From NCBI GenBank assembly GCA_938035945.1, contig CALHOU010000158.1, positions 1 through 33,446 of the forward strand: a DNA stretch of 33,446 nt, read 5' to 3'. Positions 8,514 through 17,570 of the stretch are shown piece by piece. The position numbers and the translations under genes were made by a program. This stretch comes from an uncultured Granulosicoccaceae bacterium. Lineage in GTDB: Bacteria; Pseudomonadota; Gammaproteobacteria; Granulosicoccales; Granulosicoccaceae. The notes beneath the pieces are model-generated. The model worked only from the letters and a program-made list of their open reading frames with translations, ran no database searches and was not told the DNA's origin. Each line of letters opens with the position of its first letter. The first letter of the stretch is position 1.

Positions 8514-9485
8514 ATGATTATAAGGAATAAAAAACTCATCGCAGGAGCATTCGCTGTCTCCCTAGGTGTTTTAACCGGTTGCTCCGGCTCCGAACCAGCA
8601 ACACAATCACCCGGCCCTATCATTAACGAAGTACCGAACACACAGCTTCCAGAAACAATGGCTCCTGATATACAGCAGCCAGATGTACAGGTTCCAGTAG
8701 TTACTGAACCAGAGGTGGCGATTCCGGACGGGCTTATCACAAGTGTTGCCGTCGGCACTGTTCAAGGTACCTACTACCTTGGAACTCCGCCTGAGCAAAT
8801 TGGTAGCATCGAGATTTCACCATTAACCAATGGCGAAGAAACAACTATTTTCATTAGCGGTGGTTCAACCCAAATTCCAGTGAGCTCTGCCACTGAGTTC
8901 ACCACCATTTTTGTCACTACTGATGAGAGTGGTTATTTTCAGATCGACTTACCCGTTGCTGCGCTAGCAGCAGATGTCATCGCGACCTACAACACAATTC
9001 AACTCGATGGTGAAGAGGCCAATATTGACGTTAGTGTGCAATCAGCGACGGGCGACGTTAGCGCTGATGCTTCATTACCAGTGGCAAGTGTTGTCGTAGG
9101 TACGGGTGATTTGCAGATTAGCGTAAGTTGGGATACACCAACTGATGTGGATTTAGTACTGCTTGAACCAGACAGCACACTCATCTATTTCGCTGACCCA
9201 CTCAGCGATTCAGGTGGTGCACTTGATCTTGACAGCAACGCTAATTGCGAATTGGATAATATAAACAACGAGAACATCACGTACGAAAACACTATTCCAC
9301 CTTCAGGTGAGTACATCATCGCTCTGAGCTACTATTCAGCGTGCGGTGTGACAGGGCCGACAAACTACGTAGTCACTCTGCGATACAACGGCAAAACCGA
9401 TACGTTTTCTGGCGTATTCGTACCTGCCGATGAACTCAATGAAGATACTGAGCCAACTCTTATAACCACATTTCAAATTCAGTAG
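8514..9485 (+). CDS. Lipoprotein with YfaP/DUF2135-like C-terminal domain
   Basis: 323 residues. The lipobox is L20-T21-G22-C23, followed by a Pro/Glu/Val-rich spacer and a beta-rich middle region. From about residue 200 the sequence GDLQISVSWDTPTDVDLVLL, with later SGGALDLDSNANCEL, ENITYENTIPPSGEYIIALSYYSACG and NYVVTLRYNGKTDTFSG, matches the YfaP/DUF2135 beta-sandwich pattern (W-D-T-x-x-D-V-D-L and the D-x-D-S-N-A-x-C stretch). The family is often secreted and associated with VWA or adhesive contexts; its function is unknown. The gene is monocistronic and ends in a strong hairpin at 9504-9530. Confidence 0.8.
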   Translation: MIIRNKKLIAGAFAVSLGVLTGCSGSEPATQSPGPIINEVPNTQLPETMAPDIQQPDVQVPVVTEPEVAIPDGLITSVAVGTVQGTYYLGTPPEQIGSIEISPLTNGEETTIFISGGSTQIPVSSATEFTTIFVTTDESGYFQIDLPVAALAADVIATYNTIQLDGEEANIDVSVQSATGDVSADASLPVASVVVGTGDLQISVSWDTPTDVDLVLLEPDSTLIYFADPLSDSGGALDLDSNANCELDNINNENITYENTIPPSGEYIIALSYYSACGVTGPTNYVVTLRYNGKTDTFSGVFVPADELNEDTEPTLITTFQIQ

Positions 9486-9503: not shown

Positions 9504-9535
9504 CAAACCTGCCAAGAGTTGGCAGGTTTGTCTTT
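9504..9535 (+). terminator. Intrinsic terminator of the YfaP-like lipoprotein gene
   Basis: A perfect 11-bp stem (CAAACCTGCCA, 9504-9514, pairing with 9520-9530) with a 5-nt loop, starting 18 bp after the stop codon and followed by TCTTT. The U-tract is short, but position and stem strength fit a terminator. It isolates the lipoprotein gene from the downstream RtcB leader. Confidence 0.8.
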
Positions 9536-9578: not shown

Positions 9579-9606
9579 TTGAATCATTTTTTAATTTGCG
9601 TACACT
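9579..9606 (+). promoter_or_regulatory. Putative sigma70 promoter of the leader-rtcB transcript
   Basis: TTGAAT (9579-9584), a 16-nt spacer, and TACACT (9601-9606). The predicted start site is at about 9613-9615, at or within two bases of the leader ATG (9615), so the leader peptide mRNA would be leaderless or nearly so. Consistent with this, no Shine-Dalgarno precedes the ATG. Confidence 0.55.
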
Positions 9607-9614
9607 TGCGCTCC

Positions 9615-9701
9615 ATGAAAACTTTAAACACCAATATAAACATAAACGGCACCAGTCGATTCCTGCCAATGGCGGATGAAGGGGTGCGCGCGCGGGTTTA
9701 A
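9615..9701 (+). CDS. 28-residue leader peptide controlling the RtcB-family gene (candidate)
   Basis: ATG 9615 to TAA 9699-9701 encodes a 28-residue peptide beginning MKTLNTNININGTSR and ending GVRARV. Asn occupies positions 5, 7, 9 and 11, and positions 8 and 10 are Ile encoded by the rare codon AUA. The ORF sits between a putative promoter and a stem set ending in an intrinsic terminator. Its stop codon lies inside the antiterminator arm, and codons 2-5 form the region that can sequester that arm. This layout is that of attenuator leader peptides such as TrpL and HisL, but the sequence is not one I recognise. No coding conservation could be tested here; the evidence is structural. Confidence 0.6.
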   Translation: MKTLNTNININGTSRFLPMADEGVRARV

Positions 9702-9760
9702 TAGTTTTTAGTTTCATCGCAAAAATTATTAAAAGCCCGCTAATTAGCGGGTTTTTTTTT
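9618..9760 (+). promoter_or_regulatory. Transcription attenuator with three alternative hairpins
   Basis: Region 1 (9618-9629) pairs with region 2 (9696-9708) as 12 bp with one bulged base (9702). Region 2 (9692-9709) pairs alternatively with region 3 (9721-9740): 18 bp including one G-U, with a two-base bulge (9734-9735) and loop 9710-9720. Region 3 (9736-9740, CCCGC) pairs alternatively with region 4 (9747-9751, GCGGG), followed by nine T (9752-9760). The leader stop is at 9699-9701 within region 2. Predicted logic: with no translation, or full translation to the stop, 3:4 terminates transcription. A ribosome held at codons 5-11 covers region 1, frees region 2 for 2:3, and allows read-through into rtcB. 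All pairings were read by eye; no folding energies were computed. Confidence 0.72.
9731..9760 (+). terminator. Intrinsic terminator (attenuator hairpin 3:4)
   Basis: The stem CCCGC/GCGGG (9736-9740 with 9747-9751) can be extended outward by the wobble pair G9735-T9752 and A-T pairs. Its loop is TAATTA, followed by a run of nine T. It ends about 10 bp before the rtcB Shine-Dalgarno, so it can only serve to attenuate the downstream gene. The stem strongly resembles the well-known E. coli trp attenuator terminator (AGCCCGCCTAATGAGCGGGC, from memory). Confidence 0.85.
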
Positions 9761-9782
9761 GCACGCAAGAAAGGAAAAGGAA

Positions 9783-11225
9783 ATGAGCCAGAAGATATAC
9801 ACAGGACAAGATTTAATCGAATTGGGTTGCGTTGAAGGCCCCGAACTAGGCGATGTGCTGCGCATTGTTAACGCACGTTCGCATACGCGCGACGAAGTAA
9901 TGTCAGTGATAAAGCAACACGAGCCGGCACCTGTGCTTAATCAGCATGATAAGCCTGCGCCGTGCCAATACAACATCAGCGCAGACAACGATCTGGAAGC
10001 GAATAACATCGCAAGCGTTCGTGCCACGATGGATATCGTACTGCGTACACCTGTAGTCGTTGAAGGTGCAGTCATGCCCGATGCTTGTCCGGCAGGACCC
10101 GTTGGAACCATACCGGTGGGCGGGGTTATTGCCGCTGACAACGCCATTATTCCTGGCATGCATTCAGCCGATATCTGCTGCTCGTTAATGGCAACGGTAT
10201 TTGAAGGCTCGACACCTGCGCAAGTTATGGAGGCTGCACATCGCTCCACGCATTTTGGCGCTGGTGGCCGAGAGCGTGAGCGACAACTTGCGTTACCGGA
10301 TGAATTGGCTGCAGCCGTTGCTGCATTGCCATACCCTGCTGTGCGCGCTACTGCACACACACATATGGGTACGCAAGGAGACGGTAACCACTTCCTCTAC
10401 GTAGGTACGCTCGAGTCTACTGGACAAACCGTGATGGTAACGCATCACGGCTCACGTGGAATCGGCGCACGTTTGTATAAGGAAGGTATGAAAATGGCGA
10501 TGCAATGGCGCGATAAATTGTCACCGTCAACCAAAAATGCAAACGCATGGATTCCATTTGATAGTGATGATGGACGTGAATATTGGGATGCGTTACAGGT
10601 TGTGCGTGCGTGGACAAAGCAAAATCACACGAGCTTGCACGATCTAACGGTTGAAGCCGTGAAAGGTGACATTCATCATCGTTTTTGGAACGAGCACAAC
10701 TTTGTGTTTCGTGAAGAAAAAGATAATGGGCAAAACTTGTTTTGGCATGCAAAAGGAGCAACACCTATTCATAACGATTTCATGCCTGATACAACGGGTG
10801 TGCAAATCGTTCCATTGAACATGGCCGAGCCAATTTTGTTTGTTAAAGGTGAGCGCAACGATAACAACCGCGGATTCGCACCACATGGTGCTGGGCGCAA
10901 CATGAGCCGAACCGCACACAAGAAAAAGTTATCCAACCGTTCTGATGCGGAAATATTAAAAGCCGAAACGCAAGGTTTGGATGTGCGTTTCTATACAGGT
11001 GTTACCGATATTTCAGAATTGCCTAGCGCATACAAAAACGCCGAAAGCGTGACGGCTGCAATGCACGACTTTGATTTGGCTGACGTGGTTGATCGCGTTC
11101 TACCCTACGGCTCAATCATGGCAGGCGATGGTGGGCGGGATGCACCATGGCGTAAAAAGCGTAAAGCCCGCGACTTAGAGCGCAAGCAAGGCCAGCGCAA
11201 TAAGCATGATCGTCAGTCTCGTTAA
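9783..11225 (+). CDS. rtcB: RtcB family RNA ligase
   Basis: 480 residues from ATG 9783, preceded by AAGGAAAAGGAA. RtcB ligases join RNA 2',3'-cyclic-phosphate or 3'-phosphate ends to 5'-OH ends using GTP and Mn2+. Family motifs are present: D130-ICC133 (the D-x-x-C metal motif), G201-N202-H203-F, H221-H-GSRGIG, E304-H305-NF, WHAKGATPIH, and the guanylylated histidine in APH368GAGRNMSR. One oddity is Y206, where the NHFxE glutamate is normally found; that glutamate contacts guanine in archaeal RtcB (from memory). The protein ends in a very basic tail (KKRKARDLERKQGQR). No archease, rtcA, rtcR or prfH is adjacent. Expression is probably set by the upstream attenuator. It is a divergent family member; ligase activity is likely but untested. 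Confidence 0.88.
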   Translation: MSQKIYTGQDLIELGCVEGPELGDVLRIVNARSHTRDEVMSVIKQHEPAPVLNQHDKPAPCQYNISADNDLEANNIASVRATMDIVLRTPVVVEGAVMPDACPAGPVGTIPVGGVIAADNAIIPGMHSADICCSLMATVFEGSTPAQVMEAAHRSTHFGAGGRERERQLALPDELAAAVAALPYPAVRATAHTHMGTQGDGNHFLYVGTLESTGQTVMVTHHGSRGIGARLYKEGMKMAMQWRDKLSPSTKNANAWIPFDSDDGREYWDALQVVRAWTKQNHTSLHDLTVEAVKGDIHHRFWNEHNFVFREEKDNGQNLFWHAKGATPIHNDFMPDTTGVQIVPLNMAEPILFVKGERNDNNRGFAPHGAGRNMSRTAHKKKLSNRSDAEILKAETQGLDVRFYTGVTDISELPSAYKNAESVTAAMHDFDLADVVDRVLPYGSIMAGDGGRDAPWRKKRKARDLERKQGQRNKHDRQSR

Positions 11226-11230
11226 GAATC

Positions 11231-11263
11231 GGACCATCGTCAGCTGACGTTGGTCCTTTTTTT
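11231..11263 (+). terminator. Intrinsic terminator after rtcB
   Basis: Inverted arms GGACCA (11231-11236) and TGGTCC (11251-11256) enclose a second nearly continuous stem (CGTCAG/CTGACG) and are followed by seven T. It starts 5 bp after the rtcB stop codon. Confidence 0.9.
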
Positions 11264-13117: not shown

Positions 13118-16027
13118 TTAATAGACCATGTTATTCTGACGACGGCGATATAGGCTCACCGTAGCAAACAGCAATACAACGACCAACATAGCCCACTCAC
13201 GTGGCTCTGGCACGGCCGATACAGATAGGTTGTCGGTAGGCACTCCCACTGCTTGCTCACCATTTTCATTTTCCCGGTCGAATCGATCATCTTTTTCAGA
13301 CGCCTCTTTAAGTGCTTCCTTTTGCCGATCGTTTATCAGCACAAGCATGGACGACAGCTCGGTCACAATTCTATTTTCGAGTGCCTGTACATGTAATTCA
13401 TCCAGTTGCTCCAATCCGAGCACATCCCCACTTTTAGTCATACGTTGTATTGCTTTCGCTGCACCCAGTTTTACCAGCGCATCCCCACTGGCCGAATCGC
13501 TCGTGGCTGGCCCATCAAACCAAAGCCAATCAGAACCTACGCTAGCAAGCGTCAATCCATTCTTGTCAGCAAATTTTGACTCTTCGAGCGCGACGTCAAC
13601 GCCATTTTTTAAAATAGATAATCGCGTTTTTAATTCCCTTGGCCCACCTGTTAAAAAATCACCACCAGATCGATTAACCGTAGTTAGCCAGGCATCGGCA
13701 TAAGCTTTAGGGTAAGCGCGGTTGAGATGCAACACCCAAACCGGCACACCGGAATCGACCACGGCTTGCGCATCATCTGCCAATTCATAACCCGCAGAAT
13801 CAGTGAGGATCACAATACCTTCACTATCGGGTTGATCGCGCTGGGCAAGGAAACTTTCCAAGTGCTGAATCGGTTGCGTCTTTCCCCAATAGACCTGGTT
13901 AGACACATCAACGACATCAGTACGCTTGCATTCAAGCTTACAAAAATAGATTTGTGCATTAGCAAATTCTGCCACTGCAGCTTTCACCTCTTGCTTGAGC
14001 GTGTGCATACTACGAGAGCCATCTACCAACACAACATAGTCTTCTATAGCGTTCACTAGTGATAGAACATCTGCACGCACTTGTGCACGAGGTACAGCCC
14101 AAACGGAGCGCTCATCTGTGGCCGGTATATGAGTAATGGATGGCTCAATAGACTTGAATCGCCCGACCTCATCGGGTATCCAACCACCATCACCGCTAGC
14201 AGCAAGCGCACCGCCATTAAGCTCATTAATCGTGTCTGTATCCCAAAACAGATTTCGTCTTTCTAATAGTTTTGGTAGAGGCCATGTCCCATCTTTAGTT
14301 GCCAGCGTTGCATATTCAAAGGTCACGTACATGGGTTTGCCAGGTTTTAATGAGCTAGCTCCATCAACTGTGGCACGCTCAATGGGATAGACCCGTAGCC
14401 GATACAGTTCGGGCCCCACTTTTTCCAACAATGCAGGGTCGATTCTTCTAGACACTTCAGCGTTGTAAACTTCCTGAGCAGCGCCTCTCGGGGCGACCAT
14501 ACCTGCGTTTTGTTCCAAGTTTTGTTCCGTATCACTAAGCCAAACACCTGTTAAGACAGCAAACTCTGGCAAACTAAAATGTGCCACTGTTTCCAGAATC
14601 CGGGTTCTATGGTTAACCAGTTTTTGGGTGATTCGGATAGTGGCAAGCTGATCATCAACGCTTACGTTTATTTGCTGTTTTTGCAAATAAACCGCTTCCT
14701 GATTAACATCAAGCACACCAGCGGCGTTCTGCGCACTTGATTCATCATTGAACCTCAGCGTATCCCAAATGGCGCGGTATTCTGCTTGTTGAATAGGCTG
14801 ATCGAATATTTCGCTATAGAGCTTCGCAGCTTCAATTGAATCCTGATAATTCGCGCCATCATAAATAATAGGGCTAAACATAGCGTTGAATAGCTGCTGA
14901 GGATAGTGCGCAACATCTTCACCCAGATCAAATACTTCTTCATACAGAGCCGTTAAACTCATTGCAGAACCGGTTGACGAAATATAACGGTAACGAGAAA
15001 GGTAGGCATTCAGCAGGCCTTCTCTAATATCATCTAAGCGACCGATCATATCGTGCTGGTCGGAATCGGTTATGGCTTCTTTCTCGAGCAGTGCAAACAC
15101 CGCTTGCTGTGGCTGCCGATTAACCCGGTGATGCACACCCACTAACACACCTAACACCACCACCACTATCATGGCATTGACTAGTGACGGTCTAAGCATA
15201 ATTCGCGCTATGAACTGTTGCATATATAGAAATAGTAAAACCACCGGTAGTGCAATAAACAATAAAAAGGAAGTAATGAATAAGAACATTGCGGCGATCA
15301 AGATGATGCCTTCGGCCTGAAACAAACCAAAGAACAGTTCAAGCCAATCGATTGAAATAAGCGCATCCCAAAATTCCTTAAAGCTAAATTCGGCTATAAG
15401 CGTGAATACTTCAGCGATAAGGCTTGCAAAAATCGGAATAACGAACAGGGACAGTGCAACTGACACAAACAAGCCGACCGCAAATACCACACTCGATCCG
15501 ACCATAGCAAGTGGATTGCTAACGAAATACACACCATCTTTCACAGGACCATGTATACGTTCACAACAAATAAACACGAACCACACACACAAGGCGATTA
15601 ATGCAATAAGTAAAAACCAATAGGCGCCAAAACCAAAGTCGCGCAAATTAAGTAAAAACAGGCCAATCAACAACACAGACGGCAATTCAAAGCCGTAAAA
15701 AAACTTTAGCAATAACGGCATGCGTGGTTTGCGTTCAGAAGTGAGAAGCCAATAAAACATACCTAAGCAAACAAAGGGCAACAACATAAGTACAAGCCCT
15801 AGCCCAAAATAGTGCGCAGGCATGGAATAGTGTTGATACCACATCCACATCGATGGAATCACATAAGGGAACAGGAAAAACAAACTAAATACAACAAGTG
15901 CAATTTGCCAAACCCAAAAAACACCGCTCGCGCCAAGCATGAACAGTTCTTTAAACGATATTCGTTTGAACCACGATTTAGAATCGCCACTGTTATCGTT
16001 AGTTGCTGAAGCGTCAGATTCAACCAT
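13118..16027 (-). CDS. PEP-CTERM integral membrane protein with VIT and VWA domains
   Basis: About 969 residues from ATG 16027, which overlaps the exosortase stop and is preceded by AAGGAAAT; an in-frame ATG at 16051 is less likely. Residues about 25-320 hold roughly eight membrane segments. A VIT-like domain follows (QINVSVDDQLATIRITQ to RRIDPALLEKVGPELYRLRVYPIE), then a VWA domain with MIDAS-like VDGSRSM, and a C-terminal sorting signal AVPEPREW + hydrophobic helix + RRRQ. The whole fits the 'PEP-CTERM family integral membrane protein' class (TIGR02921 as I recall, related to MSEP-CTERM). It is presumably cleaved by the adjacent exosortase. Its function is unknown. Confidence 0.88.
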   Translation of the reverse strand: MVESDASATNDNSGDSKSWFKRISFKELFMLGASGVFWVWQIALVVFSLFFLFPYVIPSMWMWYQHYSMPAHYFGLGLVLMLLPFVCLGMFYWLLTSERKPRMPLLLKFFYGFELPSVLLIGLFLLNLRDFGFGAYWFLLIALIALCVWFVFICCERIHGPVKDGVYFVSNPLAMVGSSVVFAVGLFVSVALSLFVIPIFASLIAEVFTLIAEFSFKEFWDALISIDWLELFFGLFQAEGIILIAAMFLFITSFLLFIALPVVLLFLYMQQFIARIMLRPSLVNAMIVVVVLGVLVGVHHRVNRQPQQAVFALLEKEAITDSDQHDMIGRLDDIREGLLNAYLSRYRYISSTGSAMSLTALYEEVFDLGEDVAHYPQQLFNAMFSPIIYDGANYQDSIEAAKLYSEIFDQPIQQAEYRAIWDTLRFNDESSAQNAAGVLDVNQEAVYLQKQQINVSVDDQLATIRITQKLVNHRTRILETVAHFSLPEFAVLTGVWLSDTEQNLEQNAGMVAPRGAAQEVYNAEVSRRIDPALLEKVGPELYRLRVYPIERATVDGASSLKPGKPMYVTFEYATLATKDGTWPLPKLLERRNLFWDTDTINELNGGALAASGDGGWIPDEVGRFKSIEPSITHIPATDERSVWAVPRAQVRADVLSLVNAIEDYVVLVDGSRSMHTLKQEVKAAVAEFANAQIYFCKLECKRTDVVDVSNQVYWGKTQPIQHLESFLAQRDQPDSEGIVILTDSAGYELADDAQAVVDSGVPVWVLHLNRAYPKAYADAWLTTVNRSGGDFLTGGPRELKTRLSILKNGVDVALEESKFADKNGLTLASVGSDWLWFDGPATSDSASGDALVKLGAAKAIQRMTKSGDVLGLEQLDELHVQALENRIVTELSSMLVLINDRQKEALKEASEKDDRFDRENENGEQAVGVPTDNLSVSAVPEPREWAMLVVVLLFATVSLYRRRQNNMVY

Positions 16028-17570
16028 GATGCTTGATTTCCTTGGAAACAATTTCCCTGATATTGATTAACAATTTCTCTCGAGCTTGATCTGGTACTCC
16101 GTCATGCCACAGCACAGAAACCATTGCCCAAGGCACCGCCCGATTTTTTAATTGTGAAAGCACACGTCTGGAATAATTAACCGTAATTTGATCGCCCGAC
16201 TGAAACCAGTAGTCGCTGGTATAGGCCTGTGAACCGTTCTTAACTAAACTCAGCTGACGAAACGGTGTGAATGCATTTGACGTGTTGATCTTTTTGGTAT
16301 TGCTAGACACCACCTTGTAGCCTTGTGCAATGTAGCAATGCTCTGGTAGATGTTGCGCTTTCCAATGCCCGCTTAGCACAACGAGTACGCTGGCCCTGTG
16401 CTGTATACCAGCATGCTCGGCAACGGCTGCGTATTTATAGGCACTCGCACCATTGTCTAAGAAAAATTTTGCTTCAATCGCATTCAATGGCTCTTTGTTA
16501 AAACCTTGTGATGGAAATTCAAGCACAAGCGTATGCACTGGATCTGCTGGCTCGGCATTCGATGGGGGTGATACCAAATAGCTAGAAACCGTTACTATCG
16601 CAAGCAACATTAAGGTAACGCTCGACCGTATTGGTGCTTGCTGACCGGCTTTAGCAATTGCACGGGGGTCACCGACTCGAGATACAGGACGTTGCGCATA
16701 CCTTCGAAGCAAAAGCCAACTGCACAGCAGAGCCAGTGAAAAAAAGAACAACCCTAAAGTTTCATGTAATGCCGATGCCACGTGCGCTTGATCAAACACC
16801 AAATCCAGCAAAACGAGTAACACCACCCGAAACACGTTACCTACAAACAGCAGACTCGCCGCTATTGCCGCTAGAACCAACCACCGTAAATCAACCCGAT
16901 AACGTTCAATCCAGGTTATTGCGCAATAGAAAATTCCGCCAATCCAAAATCCCCGGATGCCACTGCAATCAATATCCACAATGGCAGCTCTGTTATCAAT
17001 TAACAAAACCGTATCACTGCTAACAGTCTCAACTCCCAATGCATGCAGTAGACTCACTGCCGATTCGGCACTTAACAGACGCATTGGAAACCCAAGAAAA
17101 ATATCCAAGTAACCTTCAAAAGGCAGCACTAACATGGCCAGCATAAAAGGCAGCACACAAGTTCGCCACGCAGATGCAGTTAAGAAGTGACCAAGCAGGC
17201 CAAAGCAGAACATGAGGAACAACGCGATCGATAACGCGTTAAATTGTAGATAGCGTTGGTTTAGCACATAAGCAGTACTGGCAACACAAACTATCAGTGT
17301 TGCGTAAACATTTTTTCTCGCAAAGGCAAAGCTATATCTATCGGCTGCCAGGCGGTAGGAACACAATGCAATAAAGCAAAGTGAAACAAGAATATGATAC
17401 TGACGATCGGGGCGGGCAATTTGTCGCCAAGCCCAGTCTAAGGCTGGGCTAAACAGAACAACAACAGCCACAAGTAAACAGGCGCTGAGCAAGGCATTAA
17501 TCCAGAATGCCAGCCGGAAATTAATATCAAAAGGTTTGATTAACCAAAGACGTTTAACGCTTGAATGCAT
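16020..17570 (-). CDS. Exosortase fused to an EpsI-like C-terminal domain
   Basis: 516 residues. The N-terminal about 295 residues are polytopic and carry the exosortase catalytic triad: C202 in DCSGIRG, R248 in GNVFRV, and H269 in LHETLG. A separate membrane anchor (about 315-330) and a periplasmic domain follow, resembling EpsI/DUF3485: GHWKAQHLPEHCYIAQGYKV and YWFQSGDQITVNYSRR. Exosortases are predicted membrane transpeptidases that cleave PEP-CTERM signals. Its own likely substrate starts 8 bp inside its 3' end, so the two are translationally coupled. The subtype (perhaps O or K class) cannot be fixed without profile searches. No EPS gene cluster is nearby. Confidence 0.9.
   Translation of the reverse strand: MHSSVKRLWLIKPFDINFRLAFWINALLSACLLVAVVVLFSPALDWAWRQIARPDRQYHILVSLCFIALCSYRLAADRYSFAFARKNVYATLIVCVASTAYVLNQRYLQFNALSIALFLMFCFGLLGHFLTASAWRTCVLPFMLAMLVLPFEGYLDIFLGFPMRLLSAESAVSLLHALGVETVSSDTVLLIDNRAAIVDIDCSGIRGFWIGGIFYCAITWIERYRVDLRWLVLAAIAASLLFVGNVFRVVLLVLLDLVFDQAHVASALHETLGLFFFSLALLCSWLLLRRYAQRPVSRVGDPRAIAKAGQQAPIRSSVTLMLLAIVTVSSYLVSPPSNAEPADPVHTLVLEFPSQGFNKEPLNAIEAKFFLDNGASAYKYAAVAEHAGIQHRASVLVVLSGHWKAQHLPEHCYIAQGYKVVSSNTKKINTSNAFTPFRQLSLVKNGSQAYTSDYWFQSGDQITVNYSRRVLSQLKNRAVPWAMVSVLWHDGVPDQAREKLLINIREIVSKEIKHHG

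What the first reader, a model, noticed from the sequence alone, without database searches (positions are those of the whole stretch)
9615..9783. Translation-controlled attenuator ahead of an RtcB-family RNA ligase
A 28-codon ORF is followed by three mutually exclusive pairings. Region 1 (9618-9629) pairs with region 2 (9696-9708); region 2 (9692-9709) pairs with region 3 (9721-9740) over 18 bp; region 3 (9736-9740) pairs with region 4 (9747-9751), followed by nine T. The leader stop codon is inside region 2, and the Asn/Ile cluster overlaps region 1. This is the logic of the amino-acid operon attenuators, but the controlled gene encodes an RNA-repair ligase. The known control of E. coli rtcBA is sigma54/RtcR, so a leader-peptide attenuator for an RtcB gene would, as far as I know, be new.
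Basis: partly seen in the sequence, partly recalled or inferred. Interest (0 to 1): 0.88.

Follow-up and report, generated by a model that had tools for sequence, protein, structure and literature searches.

The report
Stall-sensing switch for RNA repair
A short RNA switch probably lets a bacterium turn on an RNA-repair enzyme, and in sister copies a set of spare transfer RNAs, when protein synthesis stalls because transfer RNAs are missing or broken.

Summary
Fourteen genomes of the order (Granulosicoccaceae) carry this RtcB clade: the leader stands directly ahead of rtcB in 9, heads a tRNA-HNH-rtcB or HNH-rtcB cluster in 3, and is absent in 2. Over 18 such leaders the antiterminator (region 2:3) is strongly supported (Stouffer z -12 to -14; 0 of 50,000 arm swaps as good). 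Region 1:2 is poorly conserved, so the best model is simpler: finishing the leader gives OFF; an early stall, or no ribosome, gives ON. The leader ORF looks leaderless. New here: the same attenuator stands ahead of tRNA genes in 7 genomes, including the window's own (8 divergent spare tRNAs). I infer a tRNA repair-and-replace regulon switched on by ribosome stalling. Asn and ATA codons are enriched in the leaders, though composition explains part of that. All evidence is computational; no expression data exist here.

The parts
9579..9584 (+). -35 element TTGAAT
   Evidence: aligns without gaps with 7 other leaders; below the threshold of the consensus scan
9601..9606 (+). -10 element TACACT, 16 nt after the -35 and 8 nt before the leader ATG; start of transcription predicted at or within about 2 nt of the ATG
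   Evidence: start of transcription not measured
9615..9701 (+). leader ORF, 28 codons and stop; no Shine-Dalgarno-like tetramer upstream
9692..9709 (+). region 2, 5' arm of the antiterminator; holds the leader stop codon
9721..9740 (+). region 3, 3' arm of the antiterminator; includes the 5' arm of the terminator
9736..9760 (+). intrinsic terminator hairpin (9736-9751) and nine T (9752-9760)
   Evidence: sequence; conserved in relatives
9783..11225 (+). rtcB, 480 aa, RtcB-family RNA ligase; the only PF01139 match found in its genome (86% complete)
11231..11263 (+). hairpin and T-run after rtcB; the gene looks monocistronic
   Evidence: read by eye
9504..9530 (+). inverted repeat after the upstream gene 8514-9485, a separate hairpin before the leader promoter
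   Evidence: read by eye

Best explanation
A leader-peptide transcription attenuator that senses ribosome stalling. The transcript starts at or within about two bases of the leader AUG and is translated without a Shine-Dalgarno. If the ribosome finishes the roughly 28 codons it covers region 2 while RNA polymerase makes region 3, the terminator folds and rtcB stays off. If the ribosome stalls in about the first two thirds of the leader (a tRNA cleaved or uncharged, or a damaged ribosome), or if none loads, region 2 pairs with region 3, the terminator cannot form and rtcB is transcribed. Homologous leaders ahead of tRNA genes in this genome and in relatives suggest one regulon that mends RNA (RtcB) and replaces lost tRNAs, and that shuts off when decoding recovers. 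Shown by sequence: architecture, conservation, pairing, gene targets. Inferred: leaderless start, stall-ON logic, and tRNA loss as the natural signal.
For: Leader directly ahead of rtcB in 9 of 14 genomes with this RtcB clade, ahead of a tRNA-HNH-rtcB or HNH-rtcB cluster in 3 more. Region 2:3: Stouffer z -6.8 (9 leaders), -13.8 (18 leaders), -12.2 with non-overlapping segments; cognate arms better than swapped arms (9 of 20,000; 0 of 50,000); three leaders held out of model building z -6.7; RNAalifold on 13 leaders picks the antiterminator. Ribosome-mask folding: window 0.98 without ribosome or with early stalls, low on the last codons; 15 of 18 leaders switch. No SD-like tetramer in 18 of 18; -10 box 7-9 nt before ATG in 12 of 18 by script against 5% of background ATGs. 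RtcR absent from all leader bearers. Eight leaders ahead of tRNA genes in 7 genomes. Precedent for the logic: in PA5471.1, deletion or an early stop turns armZ on, and loss of the CCA-adding enzyme raises armZ through the leader (PMC13041342, passages).
Against: No expression data. Folding is equilibrium, not kinetic; L007 and L010 switch weakly and L013 does not, and with the ribosome exactly on the stop codon the prediction is mixed in several leaders. Two of 14 genomes with the RtcB clade lack the leader (G033, G045). L013 has no recognisable -10 and L011 only a poor one. Leader peptides share no run of one codon, so the signal is a guess; Asn/ATA enrichment is partly compositional. The own-genome tRNA-array leader scores only E 0.0025. 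The control set of ordinary terminators is 5.
Confidence: 0.7

Rival explanations
1. Classical amino-acid-specific attenuator: Asn/Ile codons sense particular charged tRNAs, and region 1:2 frees the terminator when the leader is not translated.
For: 1:2 pairing p 0.048 in the window and 0.010 in L009; 1,576 of 50,000 permutations over 18 leaders. Asn 31 against 12.3 expected and ATA 15 against 3.6 in 15 leaders; ATA in 16 of 18 leaders.
Against: 1:2 z near zero or positive in many leaders; no shared run of one codon, 13-20 different amino acids per leader; ATA nearly as common one frame off; antiterminator predicted by default without a ribosome in most leaders.
Confidence: 0.15
2. The link with tRNA genes is incidental: the attenuator belongs to a mobile island and spread with it, and the tRNAs are cargo not usefully controlled by it.
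For: Array tRNAs are divergent (55-71% identity to housekeeping tRNAs) and one is degenerate (G044); HNH genes lie in or beside several clusters; no shared synteny around rtcB copies; tRNA array units elsewhere lie on plasmids and phages (PMC12803027, passages).
Against: In each of the 8 cases the first thing after the leader terminator is a tRNA (or tRNA-like) gene on the same strand, in 7 genomes; in 3 of them the rtcB copy stands elsewhere with its own leader. In Anabaena a tRNA array and rtcB share one regulator.
Confidence: 0.2
3. A constitutive partial terminator, or chance: the ORF and alternative arms do not regulate.
For: Support in the window alone is modest; no expression data.
Against: Co-varying antiterminator, near-fixed promoter-ATG spacing and an ORF ending in region 2 across relatives; 5 other terminators lack the pairing (mean z +0.25).
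Confidence: 0.05

Closest known systems
PA5471.1 leader of armZ/PA5471 (P. aeruginosa; PMC12057347, PMC3516279, PMC13041342, PMC3575510, passages)
   Same: Leader-peptide attenuation of a gene described as RtcB-like; induced by ribosome inhibition and by a tRNA-processing defect; on when the leader is deleted or stopped early
   Different: 13-codon leader about 250 bp upstream; gene cotranscribed with the release-factor-like PA5470 and acting on MexZ. Here: 22-57 codons, apparently leaderless, another RtcB clade (window protein 58.6 bits to TIGR03073 against a cut-off of 271.8), sister copies ahead of tRNA genes. Sequence homology of the two leaders was not tested
Anabaena trn array and rtcB under the repressor TrcR (PMC10272220, abstract and passages)
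   Same: Spare tRNA array, rtcB and HNH genes under one regulator, relieved by translation stress
   Different: Protein repressor, not a cis-acting RNA attenuator
RtcR/sigma54 control of rtcBA (PMC7790460, abstract and outline)
   Same: Damaged tRNA is the signal for RtcB expression
   Different: CARF-domain activator that binds tRNA fragments; RtcR absent from the leader-bearing genomes
Leaderless polycysteine ORF attenuators of mycobacteria (Canestrari et al. 2020, seen only as described in PMC9031893)
   Same: Leaderless short ORF whose elongation speed controls a downstream gene
   Different: Sensor of one amino acid with contiguous Cys codons
tRNA array units (M. avium; PMC12803027, passages)
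   Same: Clustered tRNAs redundant with and divergent from housekeeping ones, with an HNH gene
   Different: No leader or attenuator passage found by the word search; no RtcB mention in that paper's text

Membership tests
Leader-peptide transcription attenuator | Short translated ORF before the gene | tested here: inconclusive
   ORF conserved in position and length class over 18 leaders; translation not measured
Leader-peptide transcription attenuator | Mutually exclusive antiterminator and intrinsic terminator | tested here: met
Leader-peptide transcription attenuator | Ribosome position decides between the two structures | tested here: inconclusive
   Predicted by masked folding in 15 of 18 (cut chosen after seeing the numbers); needs experiment
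trp/his-type attenuator | Region 1:2 protector of the terminator | tested here: inconclusive
   Weak in the window (p 0.048), poorly conserved over the set
trp/his-type attenuator | Run of codons for the regulated amino acid | tested here: not met
   No shared run; Asn and ATA enriched only
PA5471.1/armZ-type leader | Controls an RtcB2-PrfH (TIGR03073) operon | tested here: not met
   58.6 bits to TIGR03073, cut-off 271.8; hairpin after rtcB
RtcR/sigma54-controlled rtcBA | RtcR gene in the genome | tested here: not met
   No PF06956 match in G000 (86% complete); 1 of 48 order genomes
RtcB RNA ligase | PF01139 profile match over cut-off | tested here: met
   134 bits, cut-off 27
RtcB RNA ligase | Ligase activity | not testable with these tools
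   no assay
tRNA array unit | Dense tRNA cluster redundant with and divergent from housekeeping tRNAs | tested here: met
   Own genome C64: 8 of 8 array tRNAs have a housekeeping anticodon match, 55-71% identity; other genomes not compared this way
Leaderless mRNA | 5' end at the AUG | not testable with these tools
   Predicted from -10 spacing and lack of SD

The most novel reading that the evidence does not exclude
One leaderless, stall-sensing attenuator family forms a regulon that answers tRNA destruction by both mending RNA (RtcB) and replacing lost tRNAs from spare arrays: a leader-peptide attenuator that controls tRNA genes, closing a direct loop from decoding failure to tRNA supply without any protein regulator.
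Probability: 0.55. Interest if true: 0.9.

Novelty: new variant of a known kind. Interest (0 to 1): 0.8.

Why it matters
How cells keep spare tRNA arrays silent yet ready is known in one case, a protein repressor in Anabaena. A cis-acting switch whose input is the ribosome itself would be a protein-free answer, and it would tie RtcB and tRNA arrays to one signal. It also suggests that leader attenuation of RtcB-type genes takes several forms: PA5471.1 in Pseudomonas, short Shine-Dalgarno-led leaders ahead of some other gammaproteobacterial RtcBs seen here, and this longer leaderless type. It makes directly testable whether tRNA-cleaving toxins induce repair and replacement together.

Tried and rejected
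Region 1:2 as a general protector: not carried by the set. Sensing of one amino acid: no shared codon run. ATA as the sensor codon: 16 of 18 leaders, but ATA is also common one frame off, so only suggestive. Reading through MazF and ribosomes without anti-SD, suggested by the leaderless start: kept as an idea only; a review says other laboratories did not reproduce the stress-ribosome findings. Rfam: no gathering-level match in the window. tRNAs in the window: none.

Similar leaders elsewhere: model R2 over 369 class genomes gave 6 weak hits (E 7e-5 to 8e-4) besides the window; by eye three (L292, L294, L295) are SD-less short ORFs with a terminator, downstream genes not identified, and three look like gene-end terminators. 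Model R1: of 5 hits in the order not used to build it, 4 are ordinary terminators. Model R2: of 7 hits in the order not used to build it, 3 are noise; it missed the G016 array leader, which was read by eye. Same RtcB clade outside the order: a terminator scan upstream of 132 loci (five of them copies of order genomes; some with little upstream sequence) gave 10 with a terminator; 4 are known leaders, the other 6 did not show this architecture by eye. Synteny: 5 window proteins gave no tblastn hit at 1e-5 in 16 loci with about 1.5-6 kb flanks.

Full report
What is there. The gene at 9783-11225 is an RtcB-family ligase (PF01139, 134 bits) and the only such match found in its genome, which is 86% complete. 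The bin belongs with uncultured Granulosicoccaceae: the 81%-identical RtcB of a same-genus genome (G010) lies on a 7,526-base contig whose public twin is so labelled. Only 22 bases separate the T-run from rtcB, so a promoter between them is unlikely. In the window alone the fold is only mildly unusual (z -2.25, 5 of 200 shuffles).

Conservation ahead of rtcB. One search covered 115 related genomes; 14 have a match to this RtcB at E <= 1e-24, all in the order. Nine have the leader directly ahead of rtcB (G000, G002, G010, G029, G036, G037, G039, G044, G046). Two have it at the head of a tRNA array-HNH-rtcB cluster (G012, G016; in G016 rtcB is cut by the contig end) and one ahead of HNH and a fragmentary rtcB (G021). 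Two lack it (G033, G045; 900 bases upstream read by eye). In a tree of 25 RtcB proteins the window falls in a ten-member family clade (support 100/96), eight of the ten with the leader; the G029 gene belongs to another clade. Five proteins from around rtcB in the window gave no hit around the other copies, so leader and gene seem to move together, within the flanks held.

Which pairings are supported. Eighteen leaders in fourteen genomes were compared. For region 2:3 the cognate arms pair better than shuffles: Stouffer z -6.8 for the first nine leaders, -13.8 for eighteen, -12.2 with segments that do not overlap. They also pair better than arms swapped between leaders (9 of 20,000 and 0 of 50,000 permutations). 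Three leaders not used for the model give z -6.7; five other terminators give mean +0.25, a small control. RNAalifold on thirteen leaders picked this antiterminator as the consensus; on the first eight it had picked the terminator. Region 1:2 is weak: z -1.06 for nine, -2.17 for eighteen, 1,576 of 50,000 permutations.

Predicted logic. I folded the nascent transcript up to the 5' arm of the terminator with a ribosome-sized mask at each codon. In the window the antiterminator is formed without a ribosome (0.98) and with a ribosome on early codons, and mostly lost with a ribosome on the last codons. Over eighteen leaders, fifteen switch by the cut early-half mean >= 0.7 and last-seven mean <= 0.4, a cut set after seeing the numbers; L007 and L010 are weaker, L013 does not switch, and with the ribosome exactly on the stop codon several are ambiguous. 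So finishing the leader should give OFF, while stalling or not starting should give ON. This is equilibrium folding, not kinetics.

Leaderless start. In eight leaders the promoter aligns without gaps: TTGAnn-like box, 16 nt, -10 box, 8 nt, ATG (in one the -10 fits better one base further on). Over eighteen, none has a Shine-Dalgarno-like tetramer upstream; a -10 box lies 7-9 nt before ATG in twelve by script, against 5% of background ATGs, and in sixteen when I read them by eye; L011 has a poor one and L013 none. The 5' end is therefore predicted at the AUG or within about two bases.

Codons. Leader peptides are diverse, 13-20 different amino acids each. In the early part of fifteen leaders Asn (31 against 12.3 expected), ATA (15 against 3.6) and CTC (14 against 2.7) are enriched. 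Dinucleotide shuffling weakens but does not remove this (p 0.001 or less), and ATA is nearly as common one frame off (15 and 13). General stall sensing fits better than a sensor of one amino acid.

tRNA genes. A covariance model of the rtcB leaders found the same element ahead of tRNA genes in G047. Weaker hits, reading by eye and a second model gave eight such leaders in seven genomes: G000 (own, C64), G012, G016, G020, G036, G044 and G047 (two). ARAGORN counts behind them: 8, 3, 17, 13, 6, 0 (a degenerate tRNA-Asn-like stretch read by eye), and 5 plus 1. Three of these genomes (G000, G036, G044) also carry leader-rtcB elsewhere. The own-genome leader (57 codons, all 20 amino acids) scores only E 0.0025 but was not in the model and has promoter, antiterminator (z -3.9 to -5.2) and terminator. 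Its eight tRNAs each duplicate a housekeeping anticodon and are 55-71% identical to that tRNA. The second G047 leader, with three CCG codons, stands directly ahead of tRNA-Pro; that may be chance. HNH genes of one kind lie in or beside several clusters; one was scanned (PF14279/PF01844), the others were likened by eye.

What is known. P. aeruginosa PA5471.1, a 13-codon leader, attenuates armZ/PA5471, described as RtcB-like, in response to ribosome inhibition (PMC12057347, PMC3516279: passages) and to loss of the CCA-adding enzyme; leader deletion or a stop at codon 3 turns it on (PMC13041342: abstract and passages). So an RtcB-family attenuator is not new, and its behaviour fits the model here. 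In Anabaena, TrcR represses a 26-tRNA array, rtcB and HNH genes and is relieved by translation stress (PMC10272220: abstract and passages). M. avium tRNA array units hold an HNH gene and redundant, divergent tRNAs (PMC12803027: passages). Searches for attenuation or leader peptides together with tRNA operons or arrays found no paper joining them: none; (tRNA arrays with anticodon nuclease) none; only the Anabaena paper; one search counted 155 papers holding two of four terms, of which I saw the 15 listed by title and abstract start. The library lacks most subscription journals, so this is weak evidence of absence.

Verdict. The attenuator is real and conserved. It is a new variant of a known kind: an apparently leaderless, stall-ON attenuator of a different RtcB clade, whose homologues also head tRNA genes. 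Mechanism and signal are inferred.

Noticed in passing
L191 (-), L023 (-), L024 (-), L027 (-), L186 (-), L190 (+), upstream of rtcB: Other gammaproteobacterial RtcB genes have 9-13 codon ORFs with a Shine-Dalgarno upstream (L024 with a TTG start), followed by a terminator in L191, L023, L024 and L027 but none found by my scan in L186 and L190, which are of the RtcB-PrfH type. Terminator scan: 1 of 30 loci and 4 of 18 loci, some loci being duplicates; sequences.
   Followed up: partly
G000:C64, L257:4108-5420: The window's own genome has a second leader of this kind ahead of eight divergent, redundant tRNA genes (Asn, Gln, Asp, Thr, Lys, Glu, Arg, Ser); the contig ends 259 bases later.
   Followed up: yes
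L229:1957-2029: ARAGORN calls a tRNA with anticodon CTA (labelled Pyl) inside the G047 tRNA array: possibly an amber-reading or miscalled tRNA.
   Followed up: no
L292, L294, L295, near position 1501: Short SD-less ORFs with a terminator in other gammaproteobacterial genomes, weak hits of model R2; downstream genes not identified.
   Followed up: no
L112-L166: RtcB relatives of this clade, 39-54% identical, are encoded at 55 loci of viral contigs.
   Followed up: no
window 16020-17570 (-) and 13118-16051 (-): Neighbouring exosortase (PF09721) and VIT-domain protein (PF08487) genes.
   Followed up: no
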